A stretch of DNA of 40,466 nucleotides, taken from contig JAUYJT010000038.1 in assembly GCA_030700225.1 (NCBI GenBank), positions 1 through 40,466 on the forward strand, read 5' to 3'. Numbering within the stretch: position 1 is the first letter of the stretch; every line of letters begins with the position of its first letter. The notes under the pieces were generated by a model. The model was not told the origin of the DNA. It was given only the letters and a program-made list of their open reading frames with translations, and made no database searches. This document shows positions 2 to 9,676 of the stretch, one piece after another. A program made the position numbers and the translations under genes. The stretch comes from Candidatus Nanopelagicales bacterium (GTDB lineage: Bacteria > Actinomycetota > Actinomycetes > S36-B12 > GCA-2699445).

Positions 2-157
2 GTCCTGCGATCCATTCGAGCCGCCGAGTTCACCGGACGCTGTGGCCGGTGCGACTTCCGCACGATCTGCGGCGGCTCCCGATCACGGGCGTTCGCGGCA
101 TCCGGCGATCCTCTGGCCGAGGATCCAGCGTGCGCCTACGATCCTGCGGCGAAGTAG
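2..157 (+). CDS. Radical SAM/SPASM protein, C-terminal end (cut by window edge)
   Basis: Reading from base 2 gives 51 residues open to a TAG at 155-157, with no start inside the window. The peptide carries a cysteine pattern C-G-R-C followed by T-I-C-G-G-S-R-S-R, then an alanine-rich stretch and L-A-E-D-P-A-C-A-Y. This is the auxiliary iron-sulfur cluster tail of SPASM-type radical SAM enzymes, a group that includes heme-modifying and peptide-modifying members. The S-adenosylmethionine-binding barrel must lie left of the window, so the substrate cannot be inferred. Its closeness to a lanthipeptide locus makes a RiPP role possible but unproven. The last part of this gene (61-141) is repeated exactly at 9580-9660 inside a gene fossil. 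Confidence 0.7.
   Translation, partial: VLRSIRAAEFTGRCGRCDFRTICGGSRSRAFAASGDPLAEDPACAYDPAAK
61..141 (+). repeat. 81-bp direct repeat, left copy
   Basis: Bases 61-141 are identical to 9580-9660 by direct reading. The repeat lies inside the 3' end of the radical SAM/SPASM gene, covers the T-I-C-G-G to A-C-A-Y segment, and stops 16 bases before the end of the stop codon. The two copies bracket the whole lanthipeptide locus. Confidence 0.95.
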
Positions 158-3031: not shown

Positions 3032-3117
3032 GGCGGGCACGTTCCATGCGACCTTCGGCGCTCGACCGGCGCGCCTTCATCACTCGGACCCAGAGCCAGA
3101 ACGGTGGTGACGACGCC

Positions 3118-6100
3118 ATGACAGCAGCGGAGCTACCTTCCCAGGTGTTGCTGGCTGGACGCCGGTGGGATGAGCGATTGGGGGCGGCCCGCCGCGGCGC
3201 CTCACTTGGTGCCGCGCCGACAGTCGCGCCGGGCGACAGCCTTGCAGCCGGTGACAGTGAACGCGGCCGCTGCACGGGTGTCGATCAACGGCTGCCCGAG
3301 GTCGACGAGTTGGTCAAGTGGCGGGAAGTGATCGACCCTGACGACGCGGGGCTGTTCGCCAAGCGGTTGGAGTGGGAGGGGTTGACGCCAGATGACGCGC
3401 GGCGGATGCTGGCTGGCGCGGACGGAAATGCTGACGCCAGCGCGGACGCTCCGCGAGATTCGACCGCAGCCTGCCCCGCGCGGCCGCAGTGGTGGGGCGT
3501 CCTGCATTGGATCTCCCGGACGTGTCGTGATTCGGCGGCCACACCAATCAGCGACGACGACTGGCTGGCAAGTGTCGAGGACTCGATGCCCGCAGCTGTC
3601 GCCCCGGTTCCGTTCAGCTGCCTGCTGTGGCCGGTGGCACATGAGGCGTGGCGACGGCTGCAAGCCGACGATCCGAGCCTGGGGGTGTTGAGCCGCGAGG
3701 CTGTGGTCGAGGTTCAGCGGGACCTCGTCGGTCGGATGTCCGCCATCGCGGCTAGAGCCTTGATGGTGGAGTTCTCGGCCGACCGGACCTGTGGAAACGC
3801 GTTCCTGCTGTCGTTGGGCGCCTCCCGCACTGATCGTGGCCGGTCCCGGTACGCCGAGTACTGTCGGCAGCACGCCAGCGAAGGGATGACTGGTTTGCTC
3901 ACGGAGTTCCCGGTGCTTGGCAGACTGTTGGCCAACGTCGTCCTGACTTGGCAACGGACGAATCGCGAGTTGTGCCGTCGGCTGGTGTCCGACGAGGCGG
4001 ATCTGGCGCAGGCGTTCGGAGCGTCGGTCCCCGTCCGAGTGAACTGGCTGAGGACAGGGGCTGGCGACACGCACTGCGGCGGGCGTTCTGTCGCCGTCCT
4101 GGGCTTGAACAGTCCAGACGGTGGGGTGTCGGTGGCCTACAAGCCGAAGGACATGAGGATCGAAGTCGAGTACCACGCCCTTGCGTCTTGGTTCGTTGAG
4201 GGTGAGCATGCGCGCCCAGTGGTCAAGGTCGTCGCGGTCGGGGACAGCTACGGCTATGCCTCAGCGGTCGAGCACGTTCCGGCACGCACGCCGGCAGAGC
4301 TTGAAGACTTCTACCGAAATGCCGGGCGGCTACTGGCACTGCTTCACTTCCTGGGTGCCACAGACGCTCATTTCGAGAACCTCATAGCCAACGGATCCCG
4401 GCTGGTTCTGATAGACCCCGAGACACTGTTCGAGGGTCGCCTGCATGCCCTGCCAGGCACCCCGGAGGGCGGCGCGGAAGGTCGAGCCGAGGGCGGCGCG
4501 CCACCGGACGGTCGCCTCGACCATGACGTGATGACTTCGGTGTTGCGCATCGGGCTGCTGCCCTCCTGGCACGTTGACGCACTCGCCGCCCGCGCGTCCG
4601 ACATCAGCGCCCTGGGAACCGAGCAGTACCCGGTGGAAGCAACCCTCATCAGTCCGGGTTGGGTGAACGCGAACACCGACGCGATGGCGTGGGGCCGTGC
4701 CTCGTTCTCAGCCCAGGCGATCGCCAGCCTGCCAGTCGGACTCGGAAGCGCCAACCCGCTCGCCAGCCATATCGGAGCGTTGGTGGAAGGCTTCACGGAC
4801 GGATATCGCCATGCGACAGACCCGTCACACCGCGACGAACTGACGAGGCGGATGCGGGCGTTCGCCGGCTTGCGTCGGCGAATCGTCGTGCGCGCCACTC
4901 AGACCTACATGAATCTGATGCTGCGCTGCGTATCCCCGGAACGCTTGCGGTCGGCCAACGATCGCGGGTTCGAACTCGACCGGTTGGGTCGCAGCGCCCT
5001 GATTGCCGAGGAACCATCAGTGCAGTGGCAACTGTTCCACGCCGAATTGCACGACCTGGAGAACCTCGACGTCCCCTTCTTCTCCTACCCACTCGGCTCT
5101 ACCAGTGTGATCGCGTCTGATCGGACCATCCCGGACGCTCTGGTCGAGGACGGACTGGCGCAAGCCCTGGCCAGGGTGAGGCAGGCGTCCGAATCCGACC
5201 TGTCGTGGCAGGTCGAGTTGATCCGGGCTGCCGTTGGCGCCCGCAGCTTCGGCATGTCAGCCAAGGAGGCGCCAAATGGGTCACCGTCCGGGCCGGATGC
5301 GACAACTGACCCCACCGCGATCAGCGACGCTTTGGCCCAGATCCTCGCGGCCATCGAAGTGGGCGCCCTGCGGGACGAGCAAAGCAACAGCACATGGCTG
5401 GTTCTCAATCCGATCGGCGATGGGACACAGATCCAGCTCGGGTTGATGGACGCGGGGCTTTACTCCGGGCGGGCTGGGCTGATGGTGTTTCTTGGCGAGT
5501 TGGCCCGGCTGTTCCGGGCCGATCCCCAGGTGGCGGAGCGGGCGCGTTCGCTGGCAGAAGCGGGTTGGCGAGCCATCACGTCGGAGTTGTTGGACCGCCC
5601 GCCCTACGACGCGTTCCGCCAACTGCGTGATCTTGGGTTGGGCTTCACAGGGGTCGGCGGGCTGCTGCGGGCGTTGGCGGTCCCCACCGCTTCCGTGACG
5701 GATTCCGATGCGCATCGAATCCGATCCCTGATCCTCGATGGGATGATCTCGGGGTTGATCGACAAAGACATGATGTTCGACTTCATGGCGGGAGCGGCTG
5801 GCGCGGTGGCTCCGCTGGCGGCGTTGCAGGGATCGTGGCCAGATGACCGGGTCAAGGCGGCCGTCCGGATGCTCGCAGATCACCTGCTCGCCCACCAAGA
5901 CACACGCTCGGGCAGCTGGGTCACGCCCATAGCCCCGCGTGCGCTCACTGGGTTGAGCCATGGGGCCAGTGGCTTCGGCCTCGCATTGCTGCAAGCCGGG
6001 TCGCTGCTCGAAGACGAGCGCTGCGTCGAAGCGAGTGCGGCAGCGTTCGGCTTCGAACGACGGTTGTTGGATCGGGAGCAAGACAACTGGCCTGACCTGC

Positions 6101-6543
6101 GGTCGAACCCGACCGCAGGCGGGTTCATGGTGGCTTGGTGTCATGGAGCGGCGGGCATCGCGCTCGCGCGGTCGAACGCGCTGGCGCTCATGCCTGACCA
6201 TTCGCTCGCCGAGCAATGGCGTGAGGACCTGGACATCGCCATTCGCAAGACGGCTCATGCGCCACAGCGCGAACTTGACCACTTGTGTTGTGGCAACGCG
6301 GGCCGGGCCGCGATCTTGCGCGGGCTGGGTCGTAGACATGGTTGGCCCGAATCCGAGGCTGCCGCCGACTCGATCACGAAGGCGATGTTGGCCCGGTGGC
6401 GCGCCACCGGGCAATTCCACCTCAATGACCTCGGCACCGGAACAACGGTCGGCCGCGCGGGTTTGATGACCGGCCTGGCGGGCATCGGCTTGCACCTATT
6501 GGGTGAATACGATCGCTGCAACCTCCTGGACCTGCTAGCGTGA
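3118..6543 (+). CDS. lanM: Class II lanthipeptide synthetase LanM, CCG-type cyclase
   Basis: A bifunctional enzyme that phosphorylates and eliminates Ser/Thr of a precursor peptide and then adds Cys thiols to form (methyl)lanthionine rings. From ATG 3118 it has 1141 residues; an in-frame ATG at 3046 would add 24 residues that do not look like the family, and neither start has a strong Shine-Dalgarno. The dehydratase half shows Y-K342-P-K344-D, D416-A-H418-F-E-N421 and D433-P-E435-T, the kinase-like active-site residues of LanM proteins. The C-terminal LanC-like half has the repeated G-x-x-G pattern, W-C1008-H-G and L-C1057-C1058-G-N. The Cys-Cys-Gly in place of Cys-His-Gly places it with the ProcM-like synthetases, known for three-cysteine zinc binding and tolerance of varied Nif11-type precursors. 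The precursor gene follows 46 bases later. Confidence 0.95.
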   Translation: MTAAELPSQVLLAGRRWDERLGAARRGASLGAAPTVAPGDSLAAGDSERGRCTGVDQRLPEVDELVKWREVIDPDDAGLFAKRLEWEGLTPDDARRMLAGADGNADASADAPRDSTAACPARPQWWGVLHWISRTCRDSAATPISDDDWLASVEDSMPAAVAPVPFSCLLWPVAHEAWRRLQADDPSLGVLSREAVVEVQRDLVGRMSAIAARALMVEFSADRTCGNAFLLSLGASRTDRGRSRYAEYCRQHASEGMTGLLTEFPVLGRLLANVVLTWQRTNRELCRRLVSDEADLAQAFGASVPVRVNWLRTGAGDTHCGGRSVAVLGLNSPDGGVSVAYKPKDMRIEVEYHALASWFVEGEHARPVVKVVAVGDSYGYASAVEHVPARTPAELEDFYRNAGRLLALLHFLGATDAHFENLIANGSRLVLIDPETLFEGRLHALPGTPEGGAEGRAEGGAPPDGRLDHDVMTSVLRIGLLPSWHVDALAARASDISALGTEQYPVEATLISPGWVNANTDAMAWGRASFSAQAIASLPVGLGSANPLASHIGALVEGFTDGYRHATDPSHRDELTRRMRAFAGLRRRIVVRATQTYMNLMLRCVSPERLRSANDRGFELDRLGRSALIAEEPSVQWQLFHAELHDLENLDVPFFSYPLGSTSVIASDRTIPDALVEDGLAQALARVRQASESDLSWQVELIRAAVGARSFGMSAKEAPNGSPSGPDATTDPTAISDALAQILAAIEVGALRDEQSNSTWLVLNPIGDGTQIQLGLMDAGLYSGRAGLMVFLGELARLFRADPQVAERARSLAEAGWRAITSELLDRPPYDAFRQLRDLGLGFTGVGGLLRALAVPTASVTDSDAHRIRSLILDGMISGLIDKDMMFDFMAGAAGAVAPLAALQGSWPDDRVKAAVRMLADHLLAHQDTRSGSWVTPIAPRALTGLSHGASGFGLALLQAGSLLEDERCVEASAAAFGFERRLLDREQDNWPDLRSNPTAGGFMVAWCHGAAGIALARSNALALMPDHSLAEQWREDLDIAIRKTAHAPQRELDHLCCGNAGRAAILRGLGRRHGWPESEAAADSITKAMLARWRATGQFHLNDLGTGTTVGRAGLMTGLAGIGLHLLGEYDRCNLLDLLA

Positions 6544-6589
6544 CGGGCGGTTCGGGGTGACAATCTCCCCGTTGTTGAAGGGAGACAAG

Positions 6590-6871
6590 GTGACCGATCA
6601 AATCGCGGCCCTCATGGACGCCGCAGCCAGCGACGAGGCGTTGAAGGCGAAACTGACTGCCGCGAAGTCGATCGACGAAATCGTCGCCGTCGCGGCCGCC
6701 AACGGTTTCACTTTGACGAGCGACGATGTGGTGGCCGCGCTTGACGCGGAGCGCGAGGTCTCGGACGCCGAACTGGAAGGCGCGGCGGGTGGCGCCAAGT
6801 CCGGCCTTGGGGCGTACGCCATTTGCAGCGCGGGTTTCCAGCCAGAGCTGCTTCCGCCTGCGTGCAGGTAA
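6590..6871 (+). CDS. lanA: Nif11-type lanthipeptide precursor peptide
   Basis: The start is GTG 6590, with AGGGAG at 6579-6584 in front; a GTG at 6557 in the same frame lacks such a site. The product is 93 residues. Positions 1-68 form a Nif11-like leader: helix-prone A-L-K-A-K-L, A-K-S-I-D-E-I-V, then A-A-N-G-F-T-L-T-S-D-D-V and an acidic end closing with E-L-E-G-A-A-G-G. Cleavage after Gly-Gly would free a 25-residue core beginning A-K-S-G and ending P-A-C-R. The core has Ser3, Cys11, Ser12 and Cys24 and no threonine, so at most two lanthionines. Two successive rings, Ser3-Cys11 and Ser12-Cys24, are the simplest pattern (inferred). It is placed right after lanM, and no other precursor was found in the window. 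Confidence 0.92.
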   Translation: MTDQIAALMDAAASDEALKAKLTAAKSIDEIVAVAAANGFTLTSDDVVAALDAEREVSDAELEGAAGGAKSGLGAYAICSAGFQPELLPPACR

Positions 6872-6919: not shown

Positions 6920-9490
6920 ATGTGCGCATGGGTCGCGATTGAGTTTGGTTTCGATCAGCGGATAGTTGGTGCGGCGTCTAACGCCGCTCGCTGCCTCAGC
7001 GAACGCGAGGGCGTCGCAATCCTCCCTCTGGTCGGGTTCGAAGTGCACCATGACGGTTCGGGGCGCACGGATCTGGCTCTTTTCACTCGGCAGGCTCCTG
7101 GCCGCCTTTGCCGTTATGGCAATGCCGAATTCGCCATTGCGGGCGATGACACCGTCGAAGTTGATCTGACTTCTGCGGCTCCCCGGGTCGCCGGAGTCTT
7201 TCATCAAGTCGCGTCCGCCACTTTGCCGCTGTCCTTGGCCCGGTTGGGGACGCCGGTGCTCGTCTCGTCAATGGTGGGACGTTCAGGTGAGCTGCGCCTG
7301 CTGTTCCCGGTGCCTGACCAGACCTCGTTGGTCGTTGCGGTCGACTCCCTCGCGGAACTTGGAGTCGGAGGACAGGTACTGGCGTCCATCAGCCACTGCG
7401 CCCCCCTCCTCACATCCGGCGGCTCGCTGCGAATAGGGATCGACTATCTGCCCGAACGTGATCGGCTCTCGGAGCGGATCGGGATCGAAGTTGTGATCGA
7501 CGCATCCCATTACGACGTCTTCGGGCCCGTTTCGCGTCTTGGCGTTCGCGACGAAACTGTTGAGCGGATGCGTGAACTCGTGCTGTCGCTGCCCAGGGTC
7601 CGCGAGCGCGAAGTAGCTCACCCACTATTCCCCGCGCTCAAAGTGCCTAATCGCGTCGACACAGTCGCGATGACCCACTTCAGCCTGTCCTGGCCGACCG
7701 GCCAGATTGACCGCGTCATCCTGAAAAGCTACATACTGGCAGCGTCGAGACAACTTGGGACGCCCGAGGCGATGGCCGACGCAGAAGCGGAAGTGGCGGC
7801 CCGGGAAGCGGGAAGGTCTTGGACGTCGCAACTGGCGTGGGCGGGCAGCCAGCTGCCGCTGCTGCGGCCGGGGCGGGCCGCGGAATCCGAGGTGGCGCGA
7901 TGGCGAGCAGCGGTCGCTGCGGATCACCCCGGGATGTTCGAGCGTCGGCTGCGAAGCGCGGGCCTGCGAAACGAACAGGCGCTGGTGGCAGTCAGCGACC
8001 GGCCGTCCGGCCTGTACGCGGAGACGGCGCCATGGTGGCCCTGGTTCGAGCGGGTGCGGTCGGCATACGCGAATCTGGGGTCGTCCGATGAGGGAGTCGC
8101 AAACGACGGGCAATGGCTCGAAAGCGCCGAGGCGCAGTTGCCACCCGGAGCCAGCCGCGGCCTCCCCTTCGCAGCGGCGCTGGCGCCCGTCGTCACCCAG
8201 GGCTGGACCCTCTTCTGCAACGATCACTCAGATCTCGTGGGATCACTGCGCCCGACCGCCGCAGATGACCTGCGGCTGATGCTGCTGGCTCGGCTCGGCG
8301 AGGCTTGCGGCAAAGCGCTGCGTTCCCTTCTCGGGCCGATGCCGGTGCCAGGTCTTGGCGGTGGGTCTCCGTCGCGGCCGGAGTTCGACCGCGCCCAATA
8401 TGCTGCCTTATGTCGCTTTCTGCATCGAACTACGCTGCGACCGCTGACTGACCCGTTCCCCGTACTCGCCCACGACCTAGCGACAGTGCTGCGACAGTGG
8501 CATGAGCGAACCACCGAGACGCTCACCCGGGTGGCGGTCCAGCGGGACGAACTCGCCCGGGCGTTCGGGGTGGCGACAGACGCGGGGCTGACGGCAGTGC
8601 GGGCGCTGTCGAGCGAGACACACGACGACGGGAGGTCGTCCTGGCTGCTCAGCCTCGGGGACGTGCGCGTGCGCTACATTCCGGAAGACCTGCGGTTGGC
8701 TGCGGCGTGTCGAGGGATTCTGTCGATCCTGGGCGATCACGGCCTGAGTCCAGACTTGCTGCCTTGTCCGCCCATGGTCCTTGGACTGGACCGCGCGACA
8801 GGCGATCTCGCCGGGGACCGCTTCGGATTCGTGGAGGATCTAAACGGCGGAGCGCGGCCAGAGTCCGGCCCACCGACGCAGGCAGTGAACGCCGGGCAGG
8901 CCGCTGCGTTGTCAAGCCTGCTCGGGACTGCTTGGGACGCCGTCGCACAACTCGCTGCAGCCGGGAATGAGCTGGACCTGCCTTCGGAAGAACCGCGCGG
9001 GACGCCGCCCGGCAGCTTCCCCGACTTCGCGGCCGGATTCGAGGACACGTACAACGCAGTTTCTGCTGCGGCCCCCAGCGTGTTGGCCGCGATCGAAGAC
9101 GCTGCCCACCTTCCTCGTCGGCTGGTTCTGCGGCCGGACGACGACTACCGGCGGCTGCTCGACCAGGCTTTCGAGCCGACGTCCTTGACATCGGCGACCG
9201 CGAGGGCCGTCGCGCTGGAGCGGCTCGCCCGCGAGTACTTCGATCCGCGAGGGGCACACTGGCCGGAGGATCTGTTGGGCGCCGAGCAGGAAGCCCTGGC
9301 CCGCCTCGACGTTCCGCGCGTCGAGGCGTTCCTCGGCCAGGCTGGCTGCCGGTGGGACCGCAGTGGCGGGCTGGCCAGTTGGCCCGACACACACAACTAT
9401 GAGCGGATTCGACGCGGCCTCGCCCAGCTGAGCCCCACCGACCTGCGACGACGGCTCACGGCGATGAGCGATTCAAGCAAGCAGCGCTGA
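6920..9490 (+). CDS. LanM-like pseudo-dehydratase with unknown N-terminal domain
   Basis: An 856-residue protein starting 48 bases after the precursor stop, with ATG 6920 the only start between that stop and the homologous region; no clear Shine-Dalgarno is present. Residues of about 1-300 form a mixed alpha/beta domain that I do not recognise (notable stretch H-F-S-L-S-W near residue 255). From about residue 325 the sequence aligns by eye with the N-terminal half of the neighbouring LanM: R-W-R-A-A-V against K-W-R-E-V-I, Y-A-A-L-C-R-F-L-H against Y-A-E-Y-C-R-Q-H, and D-E-L-A-R-A-F-G-V against A-D-L-A-Q-A-F-G-A. The active-site Y-K-P-K-D has become Y-I-P-E-D, D-A-H-F-E-N has no counterpart and D-P-E-T is absent. 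There is no LanC cyclase. It therefore probably does not phosphorylate; binding the leader or assisting the active LanM is an inference. Confidence 0.8.
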   Translation: MCAWVAIEFGFDQRIVGAASNAARCLSEREGVAILPLVGFEVHHDGSGRTDLALFTRQAPGRLCRYGNAEFAIAGDDTVEVDLTSAAPRVAGVFHQVASATLPLSLARLGTPVLVSSMVGRSGELRLLFPVPDQTSLVVAVDSLAELGVGGQVLASISHCAPLLTSGGSLRIGIDYLPERDRLSERIGIEVVIDASHYDVFGPVSRLGVRDETVERMRELVLSLPRVREREVAHPLFPALKVPNRVDTVAMTHFSLSWPTGQIDRVILKSYILAASRQLGTPEAMADAEAEVAAREAGRSWTSQLAWAGSQLPLLRPGRAAESEVARWRAAVAADHPGMFERRLRSAGLRNEQALVAVSDRPSGLYAETAPWWPWFERVRSAYANLGSSDEGVANDGQWLESAEAQLPPGASRGLPFAAALAPVVTQGWTLFCNDHSDLVGSLRPTAADDLRLMLLARLGEACGKALRSLLGPMPVPGLGGGSPSRPEFDRAQYAALCRFLHRTTLRPLTDPFPVLAHDLATVLRQWHERTTETLTRVAVQRDELARAFGVATDAGLTAVRALSSETHDDGRSSWLLSLGDVRVRYIPEDLRLAAACRGILSILGDHGLSPDLLPCPPMVLGLDRATGDLAGDRFGFVEDLNGGARPESGPPTQAVNAGQAAALSSLLGTAWDAVAQLAAAGNELDLPSEEPRGTPPGSFPDFAAGFEDTYNAVSAAAPSVLAAIEDAAHLPRRLVLRPDDDYRRLLDQAFEPTSLTSATARAVALERLAREYFDPRGAHWPEDLLGAEQEALARLDVPRVEAFLGQAGCRWDRSGGLASWPDTHNYERIRRGLAQLSPTDLRRRLTAMSDSSKQR

Positions 9491-9676
9491 TCGTTCTTGC
9501 TTCCGACTAGATTGCTCGGACAGTTCCACCCCAATGACCTCGGCACCGGAACAGCGGTCGGGTCGACCAGCAGCCCGACCACGATCTGCGGCGGCTCCCG
9601 ATCACGGGCGTTCGCGGCATCCGGCGATCCTCTGGCCGAGGATCCAGCGTGCGCCTACGACCCTTCGCCTGTGTAG
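9491..9676 (+). pseudogene. Chimeric gene fossil: LanM 3' fragment fused to radical SAM 3' fragment
   Basis: After the TGA of the previous gene a frame stays open to TAG 9674-9676 but has no credible start. Bases 9521-9561 match the C-terminal part of lanM (6412-6452) at 38 of 41 positions, giving G-Q-F-H-P-N-D-L-G-T-G-T. This runs in frame through a short linker into T-I-C-G-G-S-R-S-R and the SPASM tail, identical over 81 bases with 61-141, then diverges to end D-P-S-P-V instead of D-P-A-A-K. The simplest reading is a deletion that joined the inside of a second lanM copy to the end of a second radical SAM copy. It indicates that the locus once held a duplicated set of these genes. Confidence 0.75.
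9580..9660 (+). repeat. 81-bp direct repeat, right copy
   Basis: Identical to 61-141. It lies within the chimeric fossil and marks the right boundary of the lanthipeptide segment. Bases before and after the block differ from the left copy except for a few scattered positions. Confidence 0.95.

What the first reader, a model, noticed from the sequence alone, without database searches (positions are those of the whole stretch)
6920..9490. Catalytically dead LanM-like protein paired with an active LanM
The 856-residue protein aligns by eye with the dehydratase half of the neighbouring LanM from about residue 325 on. It has lost the kinase lysine (Y-K-P-K-D to Y-I-P-E-D) and has no D-A-H-F-E-N or D-P-E-T counterpart, and it lacks the cyclase. 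Its first 300 residues are a domain I do not recognise. LanM companions that are pseudo-enzymes with a new fused domain are not a known standard arrangement; it may present the leader, control ring order or add a further modification. The new domain is the prime candidate for an undescribed chemistry or partner.
Basis: partly seen in the sequence, partly recalled or inferred. Interest (0 to 1): 0.82.

Follow-up and report, generated by a model that had tools for sequence, protein, structure and literature searches.

The report
Prenyltransferase fused to dead LanM dehydratase
Next to a working lanthipeptide-making enzyme this bacterium has a two-part protein: a barrel-shaped enzyme of the kind that attaches oily isoprenoid groups, joined to a broken copy of the lanthipeptide enzyme that probably just holds the peptide, a combination I found nowhere else.

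Summary
ORF 6920-9490 (856 aa) is a LanM dehydratase relative from about residue 323 on: most catalytic residues are lost, about 110 residues in the activation-loop/KA region are deleted, and the cyclase is absent. The neighbouring LanM and its Nif11-leader precursor look intact. The 'unrecognised' first 300 residues are explained: an AlphaFold2 model (pLDDT 76) matches ABBA (PT-barrel) prenyltransferases; all 50 top structural rows are ABBA enzymes (Z 11.9-14.8), including the peptide prenyltransferases KgpF, PatF and PagF. Sequence relatives of this domain occur in 13 other genomes of the order, inserted in the ThcOx/SagB azoline oxidase of cyanobactin-like clusters wherever read in full; the window is the only LanM fusion found. 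Best reading: a two-domain lanthipeptide prenyltransferase in which a dead LanM docks the Nif11 leader and the ABBA domain prenylates the core, most likely its single Tyr. Prenylated lanthipeptides with Nif11 leaders are already known (stand-alone MppC, JACS 2025), so the chemistry is not new; the architecture is. Activity and the leader-docking role are inferred.

The parts
3046..6543 (+). LanM class II lanthipeptide synthetase (1165 aa as called; the true start may lie further in), dehydratase plus LANC cyclase, catalytic residues present
   Evidence: TIGR03897 613 bits against cut-off 304; DUF4135 4e-86 and LANC_like 3e-38; CylM catalytic positions kept
6590..6871 (+). Nif11-leader precursor peptide (93 aa from the GTG at 6590, behind AAGGGAGACAAG; the ORF list starts at 6557); leader ends EGAAGG, putative core AKSGLGAYAICSAGFQPELLPPACR with 2 Ser, 2 Cys, 1 Tyr
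   Evidence: Nif11 PF07862 8e-11, TIGR03798 3e-13; sequence. Core boundary inferred from the GG motif
6920..9490 (+). ABBA prenyltransferase / pseudo-LanM fusion, 856 aa, 48 bases downstream of the precursor
6920..7756 (+). Residues 1-279: ABBA (PT-barrel) prenyltransferase domain; about 30 residues shorter than its ThcOx-embedded relatives between the second and third beta hairpins
   Evidence: AF2 pLDDT 76.3, pTM 0.73; Foldseek 5ynv E 3.6e-5, prob 1.00; VIA-align Z 11.9-14.8, all 50 rows ABBA enzymes; alignment
7886..9490 (+). Residues 323-856: degenerate LanM dehydratase; capping/N-lobe part retained, kinase residues lost, activation-loop/KA segment deleted, no cyclase
9517..9561 (+). 45-base fragment copied from the 3' end of the LanM gene (91% to 6408-6452), behind the fusion gene's stop
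   Evidence: self-BLASTN

Best explanation
The protein is a two-domain lanthipeptide tailoring enzyme. LanM (3046-6543) dehydrates Ser and forms thioether rings in the Nif11-leader precursor (shown only as intact domains and residues). The downstream protein then prenylates the core with its N-terminal ABBA barrel (fold well supported, activity inferred). The likely acceptor is Tyr8 of the putative core, its only side chain of the usual aromatic acceptor types. Its C-terminal half is a LanM dehydratase that lost kinase and elimination chemistry but kept the capping-helix/N-lobe scaffold; it probably survives as a docking module for the same Nif11 leader (inferred). It would play the part that the leader-binding surface of the stand-alone lanthipeptide prenyltransferase MppC plays.
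For: (1) AF2 model of residues 1-294 matches ABBA prenyltransferases over 218-256 residues; all 50 VIA-align rows are ABBA enzymes, and listed Foldseek hits outside that group have probability 0.15 or less. (2) Sequence relatives of the domain sit in RiPP tailoring enzymes of the same order: a roughly 300-residue insert in ThcOx/SagB oxidases next to PatA/PatG proteases, YcaO and a sulfotransferase. (3) P0001 keeps 17 of 22 invariant charged/His/Tyr residues of those relatives, against 15 of 28 other invariant positions. (4) By contrast, in the LanM half 7 of 10 CylM catalytic positions are changed (D252, K274, D347, H349, N352, D364, T512; kept H254, E366, R506), while 10 of 11 invariant positions from W92 to P289 of the neighbouring LanM (capping/N-lobe) are kept. 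(5) Operon-like order LanM, precursor, fusion, all on +, gaps of 46 and 48 bases. (6) Precedent: MppC, an ABBA enzyme in a LanM/Nif11-leader cluster, geranylates Trp only with the leader attached (PMC12715784).
Against: No relative of the full fusion was found, so selection on it cannot be measured. P0001's barrel lacks about 30 residues between hairpins 2 and 3 that its relatives have, K255 of the family is Ser, and pLDDT is only 60-69 over residues 51-100, so the barrel could be impaired. A fold match does not show activity, and I had no coordinates to map the diphosphate-binding residues. Leader binding was not tested; the dead LanM could instead pair with the active LanM. The C-terminal AF2 model failed. 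The core has no Trp, the residue MppC modifies.
Confidence: 0.58

Rival explanations
1. Both halves are non-catalytic: the protein is a chaperone, immunity or allosteric partner of the active LanM, made of a dead LanM and a decayed ABBA barrel.
For: Most LanM catalytic residues lost; about 30-residue deletion in the barrel relative to its family; single occurrence.
Against: Frame open over 856 codons with coding signal in both halves; 17 of 22 invariant charged/His/Tyr residues of the barrel family kept despite about 25-28% identity.
Confidence: 0.2
2. The ABBA domain is active, but the LanM half forms a heterodimer with the active LanM and so receives the ring-closed peptide directly, rather than binding the leader itself.
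For: Adjacent genes; homologous scaffolds; MppC prefers the ring-closed substrate, so coupling to LanM would make sense (PMC12715784).
Against: CylM is reported as a monomer in crystal and solution; nothing in the sequence tests it.
Confidence: 0.15
3. The gene is a recombination product without function.
For: Short copied fragments of the LanM 3' end (9517-9561) and of a radical SAM gene end (9580-9664) lie just behind the stop; single occurrence.
Against: The two halves are only about 27-31% identical to their nearest relatives found, so neither is a recent copy; no internal stop or frameshift; domain boundaries are clean; codon usage fits the frame.
Confidence: 0.07

Closest known systems
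MppC, lanthipeptide prenyltransferase of Moorena producens (mpp cluster; PMC12715784)
   Same: ABBA-type enzyme in a cluster with a class II LanM and a Nif11-leader precursor; predicted to modify the ring-closed core
   Different: MppC is described as a soluble ABBA-type enzyme with no LanM domain, and engages the leader through its own residues (Phe340, Trp336) and a surface patch; here a whole degenerate LanM dehydratase is fused behind the barrel. MppC modifies Trp; this core has none
Cyanobactin prenyltransferases PagF, PatF, KgpF
   Same: Same fold: VIA-align Z 12.2-13.0; act on RiPP cores
   Different: Not fused to LanM; leader-independent according to PMC12715784; only 8-10% identity over the aligned residues
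ThcOx/SagB azoline oxidases with an inserted ABBA domain (same order, e.g. L032, L037)
   Same: Sequence homologues of the same barrel domain (about 23-28% identity), also grafted onto a RiPP enzyme
   Different: Host enzyme keeps its oxidase domain; no LanM; cyanobactin-like clusters
LanM (CylM, LicM2) and LanMbC (CcaM, PMC10676384)
   Same: DUF4135 dehydratase scaffold
   Different: Catalytic residues lost, activation-loop/KA segment deleted, no cyclase of either type, prenyltransferase in front

Membership tests
LanM class II lanthipeptide synthetase | Score above the curated NCBIfam TIGR03897 cut-off (304 bits) | tested here: not met
   94.9 bits
LanM class II lanthipeptide synthetase | Kinase residues K274, D347, H349, N352, D364 (CylM) | tested here: not met
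   I587, W672, A674, Q677, S689
LanM class II lanthipeptide synthetase | Elimination residues D252, H254, R506, T512 (CylM) | tested here: not met
   E566, H568, R734, D740: two of four kept; T512A abolishes elimination in CylM
LanM class II lanthipeptide synthetase | C-terminal LANC cyclase | tested here: not met
   No LANC_like hit; the protein ends where the dehydratase ends
LanM class II lanthipeptide synthetase | DUF4135 homology (descent) | tested here: met
   PF13575 E 4.4e-27, above cut-off; hhalign 99.7%
ABBA (PT-barrel) prenyltransferase | PT-barrel fold of repeated alpha-beta-beta-alpha units | tested here: met
   AF2 model pLDDT 76; VIA-align Z up to 14.8, Foldseek prob 1.00
ABBA (PT-barrel) prenyltransferase | Sequence match to a curated prenyltransferase family | tested here: not met
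   No such Pfam hit for any of 12 members at E up to 10 and no NCBIfam hit; no ABBA chain by profile among PDB sequences. It is the sequence families, not the fold, that fail
ABBA (PT-barrel) prenyltransferase | Diphosphate-binding Arg/Lys/Tyr lining the barrel and an acidic base | tested here: inconclusive
   Invariant E41, R121, R126, R171, R186, K269, Y271 are kept, but without coordinates their inward orientation was not checked
Leader-dependent lanthipeptide prenyltransferase (MppC type) | Encoded with a LanM and a Nif11-leader precursor | tested here: met
Leader-dependent lanthipeptide prenyltransferase (MppC type) | Needs the leader for activity | not testable with these tools
   Needs biochemistry

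The most novel reading that the evidence does not exclude
A new principle of RiPP enzyme evolution: one ABBA prenyltransferase lineage has been grafted onto two unrelated RiPP enzymes (inserted in ThcOx oxidases, fused to a LanM that then lost catalysis), turning a dead lanthipeptide synthetase into a substrate-docking module for lipidation.
Probability: 0.45. Interest if true: 0.75.

Novelty: new variant of a known kind. Interest (0 to 1): 0.62.

Why it matters
Lanthipeptide prenylation was shown only recently and depends on leader recognition. A natural fusion in which a pseudo-LanM appears to supply that recognition would show how modifying enzymes acquire leader specificity, and would suggest a design rule: a dead LanM as a docking tag for other tailoring domains. 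It would give a role to a catalytically dead LanM dehydratase, and it draws attention to ABBA domains embedded in azoline oxidases, a second architecture for which I found no report.

Tried and rejected
Pfam and NCBIfam scans of residues 1-317, and Pfam at E up to 10 for all 12 family members, gave nothing meaningful; ATP-grasp_5, Nepo_coat and DUF2007 hits are sub-threshold noise. A profile search of PDB sequences with the family alignment gave only chance hits, so the ABBA identity rests on fold comparison alone. The single-sequence genome-contig scan found nothing; the alignment scan recovered the ThcOx-type relatives. Viral and plasmid searches found nothing. Hits in G283 and G366 (L007, L048) were judged chance matches in unrelated coding regions. 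The AF2 job on residues 281-856 with only the neighbouring LanM in the alignment failed (pLDDT 37), and no fold search was run on it. Hypothesis that the active-site residues are kept at shifted positions: the Asp of W-D-A-V-A-Q is one position off D347, with Ala and Gln at the H349 and N352 positions, so rejected. hhalign and the pairwise alignments place the middle of the LanM half differently; the multi-sequence alignment was used for residue mapping. The prolyl-oligopeptidase gene (337-2448, opposite strand) and the downstream ECF transporter genes were considered as cluster members and left out for lack of evidence.

Full report
WHAT IS THERE. The window is contig C38 of a 2.6 Mb genome in 85 contigs. 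Genomes of the same order carry titles naming actinobacteria, one of them a Nanopelagicales bacterium; I call the order Nanopelagicales on that basis. Three genes lie head to tail on the + strand: a LanM (3046-6543), a Nif11-leader precursor (start best read at the GTG 6590 behind AAGGGAGACAAG; stop 6871) and the 856-aa gene of the finding (6920-9490). The LanM has DUF4135 and LANC domains and scores 613 bits with the LanM model (cut-off 304); the precursor matches Nif11 and the Nif11-leader RiPP family. The putative core after the GG motif is AKSGLGAYAICSAGFQPELLPPACR. Codon usage supports the frame of both halves of the 856-aa gene.

THE LANM HALF. From about residue 323 the protein is homologous to the neighbouring LanM: BLASTP E 4e-21, DUF4135 E 4.4e-27, hhalign 99.7%, 82.8 bits against at most 27.3 in 300 shuffles. 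In an alignment with LicM2 and other LanMs of the order, with CylM numbering and roles from PMC4550811, the kinase residues K274, D347, H349, N352 and D364 have become I587, W672, A674, Q677 and S689; the E366 position is kept (E691). Of the elimination residues D252 is Glu (E566), H254 is kept (H568), R506 is kept (R734) and T512 is Asp (D740); T512A abolishes elimination in CylM. About 110 residues net, corresponding to the activation loop and part of the KA domain, are missing, and there is no cyclase. In contrast, 10 of 11 positions invariant among the LanMs compared, from W92 to P289 of the neighbouring LanM (the region I equate with CylM's capping helices and N-lobe), are retained. The half therefore looks like a LanM scaffold kept without its chemistry. 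An AF2 model of this half failed, so its fold is inferred from sequence homology.

THE N-TERMINAL DOMAIN. Residues 1-317 match no Pfam or NCBIfam family. An order-wide search found relatives and a profile search found the domain in 13 of the other 165 genomes of the order, and convincingly in no genome outside the order among 396 phylum and 395 class samples. Eight of these proteins were read in full; in all the domain lies inside a ThcOx/SagB azoline oxidase. Four more have the same length and domain position, and one is split over two contigs. L032 aligns to ThcOx 75-159 before the domain and 200-463 after it. Neighbourhoods of L032, L034, L037 and L079 hold PatA/PatG-like subtilases, and those of L034, L037 and L079 a YcaO (domain searches run on L037; the others by likeness); L034 and L037 also have a sulfotransferase. 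With these relatives as alignment (A2, 12 rows) AF2 gave pLDDT 76.3 and pTM 0.73 for residues 1-294, with repeated beta hairpins flanked by helices. Foldseek's best matches are ABBA prenyltransferases (FamD1 E 3.6e-5, CloQ, then DMATS1, KgpF); listed hits outside that group have probability 0.15 or less. VIA-align gives Z 14.8 (prenyltransferase of Streptomyces CL190), 14.3 (CymD), 13.0 (KgpF), 12.7 (PatF) and 12.2 (PagF); all 50 listed rows are ABBA enzymes and cover model residues 1 to about 279. Of 22 charged/His/Tyr positions invariant in the ThcOx-embedded relatives P0001 keeps 17, including E41, R121, R126, R171, R186, K269 and Y271, against 15 of 28 other invariant positions. P0001 lacks about 30 residues between hairpins 2 and 3.

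HOW IT MOST LIKELY WORKS. LanM installs the thioether rings; the fusion protein then prenylates the core. The only side chain of the common aromatic acceptor types (Trp, Tyr, His) in the core is Tyr8, so a +68 (dimethylallyl) or +136 (geranyl) shift on Tyr is predicted; Ser, Lys or Arg are less likely acceptors. The dead LanM half most plausibly docks the Nif11 leader. The case for leader dependence comes from MppC of the Moorena mpp cluster, a soluble ABBA-type prenyltransferase beside a LanM and a Nif11-leader precursor, which geranylates Trp only on the leader-bearing, preferably ring-closed peptide (PMC12715784). In CylM the dehydratase domain alone, without the cyclase, modifies its substrate efficiently (PMC4550811), so a LanM dehydratase can engage its substrate by itself. 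Shown here: homologies, residue losses, fold match, gene order. Inferred: activity, acceptor, leader docking, order of steps. No exporter was recognised among the genes examined near this cluster; NHLP-type exporter genes lie beside another LanM on contig C61 and could serve it (inference).

NOVELTY. Prenylated lanthipeptides with Nif11 leaders are known. I found no paper in the library that describes a prenyltransferase fused to LanM or inserted in ThcOx. The library misses most subscription journals, and two papers cited by the MppC report, on polycyclic isoprenoid RiPPs and on LanM leader engagement, were not held. I rate it a new variant of a known kind.

LIMITS. The fusion occurs once, in a draft assembly; selection could not be measured; metagenome collections could not be searched. 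Confidence: ABBA fold about 0.95, active prenyltransferase on this precursor about 0.65, leader-docking role of the dead LanM about 0.5.

Noticed in passing
window 61-145 and 9580-9664: An 85-base stretch, 98.8% identical, occurs at both places: the 3' end of a radical SAM/SPASM gene (TIGR04053-like, runs off the contig start) and a copy behind the fusion gene.
   Followed up: partly
window 9517-9561: 45-base copy (91%) of the LanM 3' end just behind the fusion gene's stop; with the SPASM fragment it marks recombination at this spot.
   Followed up: partly
L045:7504-8340 (genome contig C61): A second lanthipeptide cluster has two Nif11 precursors with a copy of the LanM 5' end (VTVDAAIGTHGWPWHERLERAGR) between them, a similar fragment-copying pattern, and NHLP-type exporter genes.
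   Followed up: partly
L032:4415-6778, L037:5147-7483, L043:1-1875, L079:7561-10452 and others: ABBA prenyltransferase domain inserted inside ThcOx/SagB oxidases of cyanobactin-like clusters: an architecture I found no report of, and better represented than the LanM fusion.
   Followed up: partly
L037:8296-9537 and L034:9633-10964: A sulfotransferase fused to a PqqD-like domain (domain calls run on L037) in the cyanobactin-like clusters, suggesting peptide sulfation.
   Followed up: no
genome G000 contigs C38, C61, C23: Three full LanM genes in a 2.6 Mb genome.
   Followed up: no
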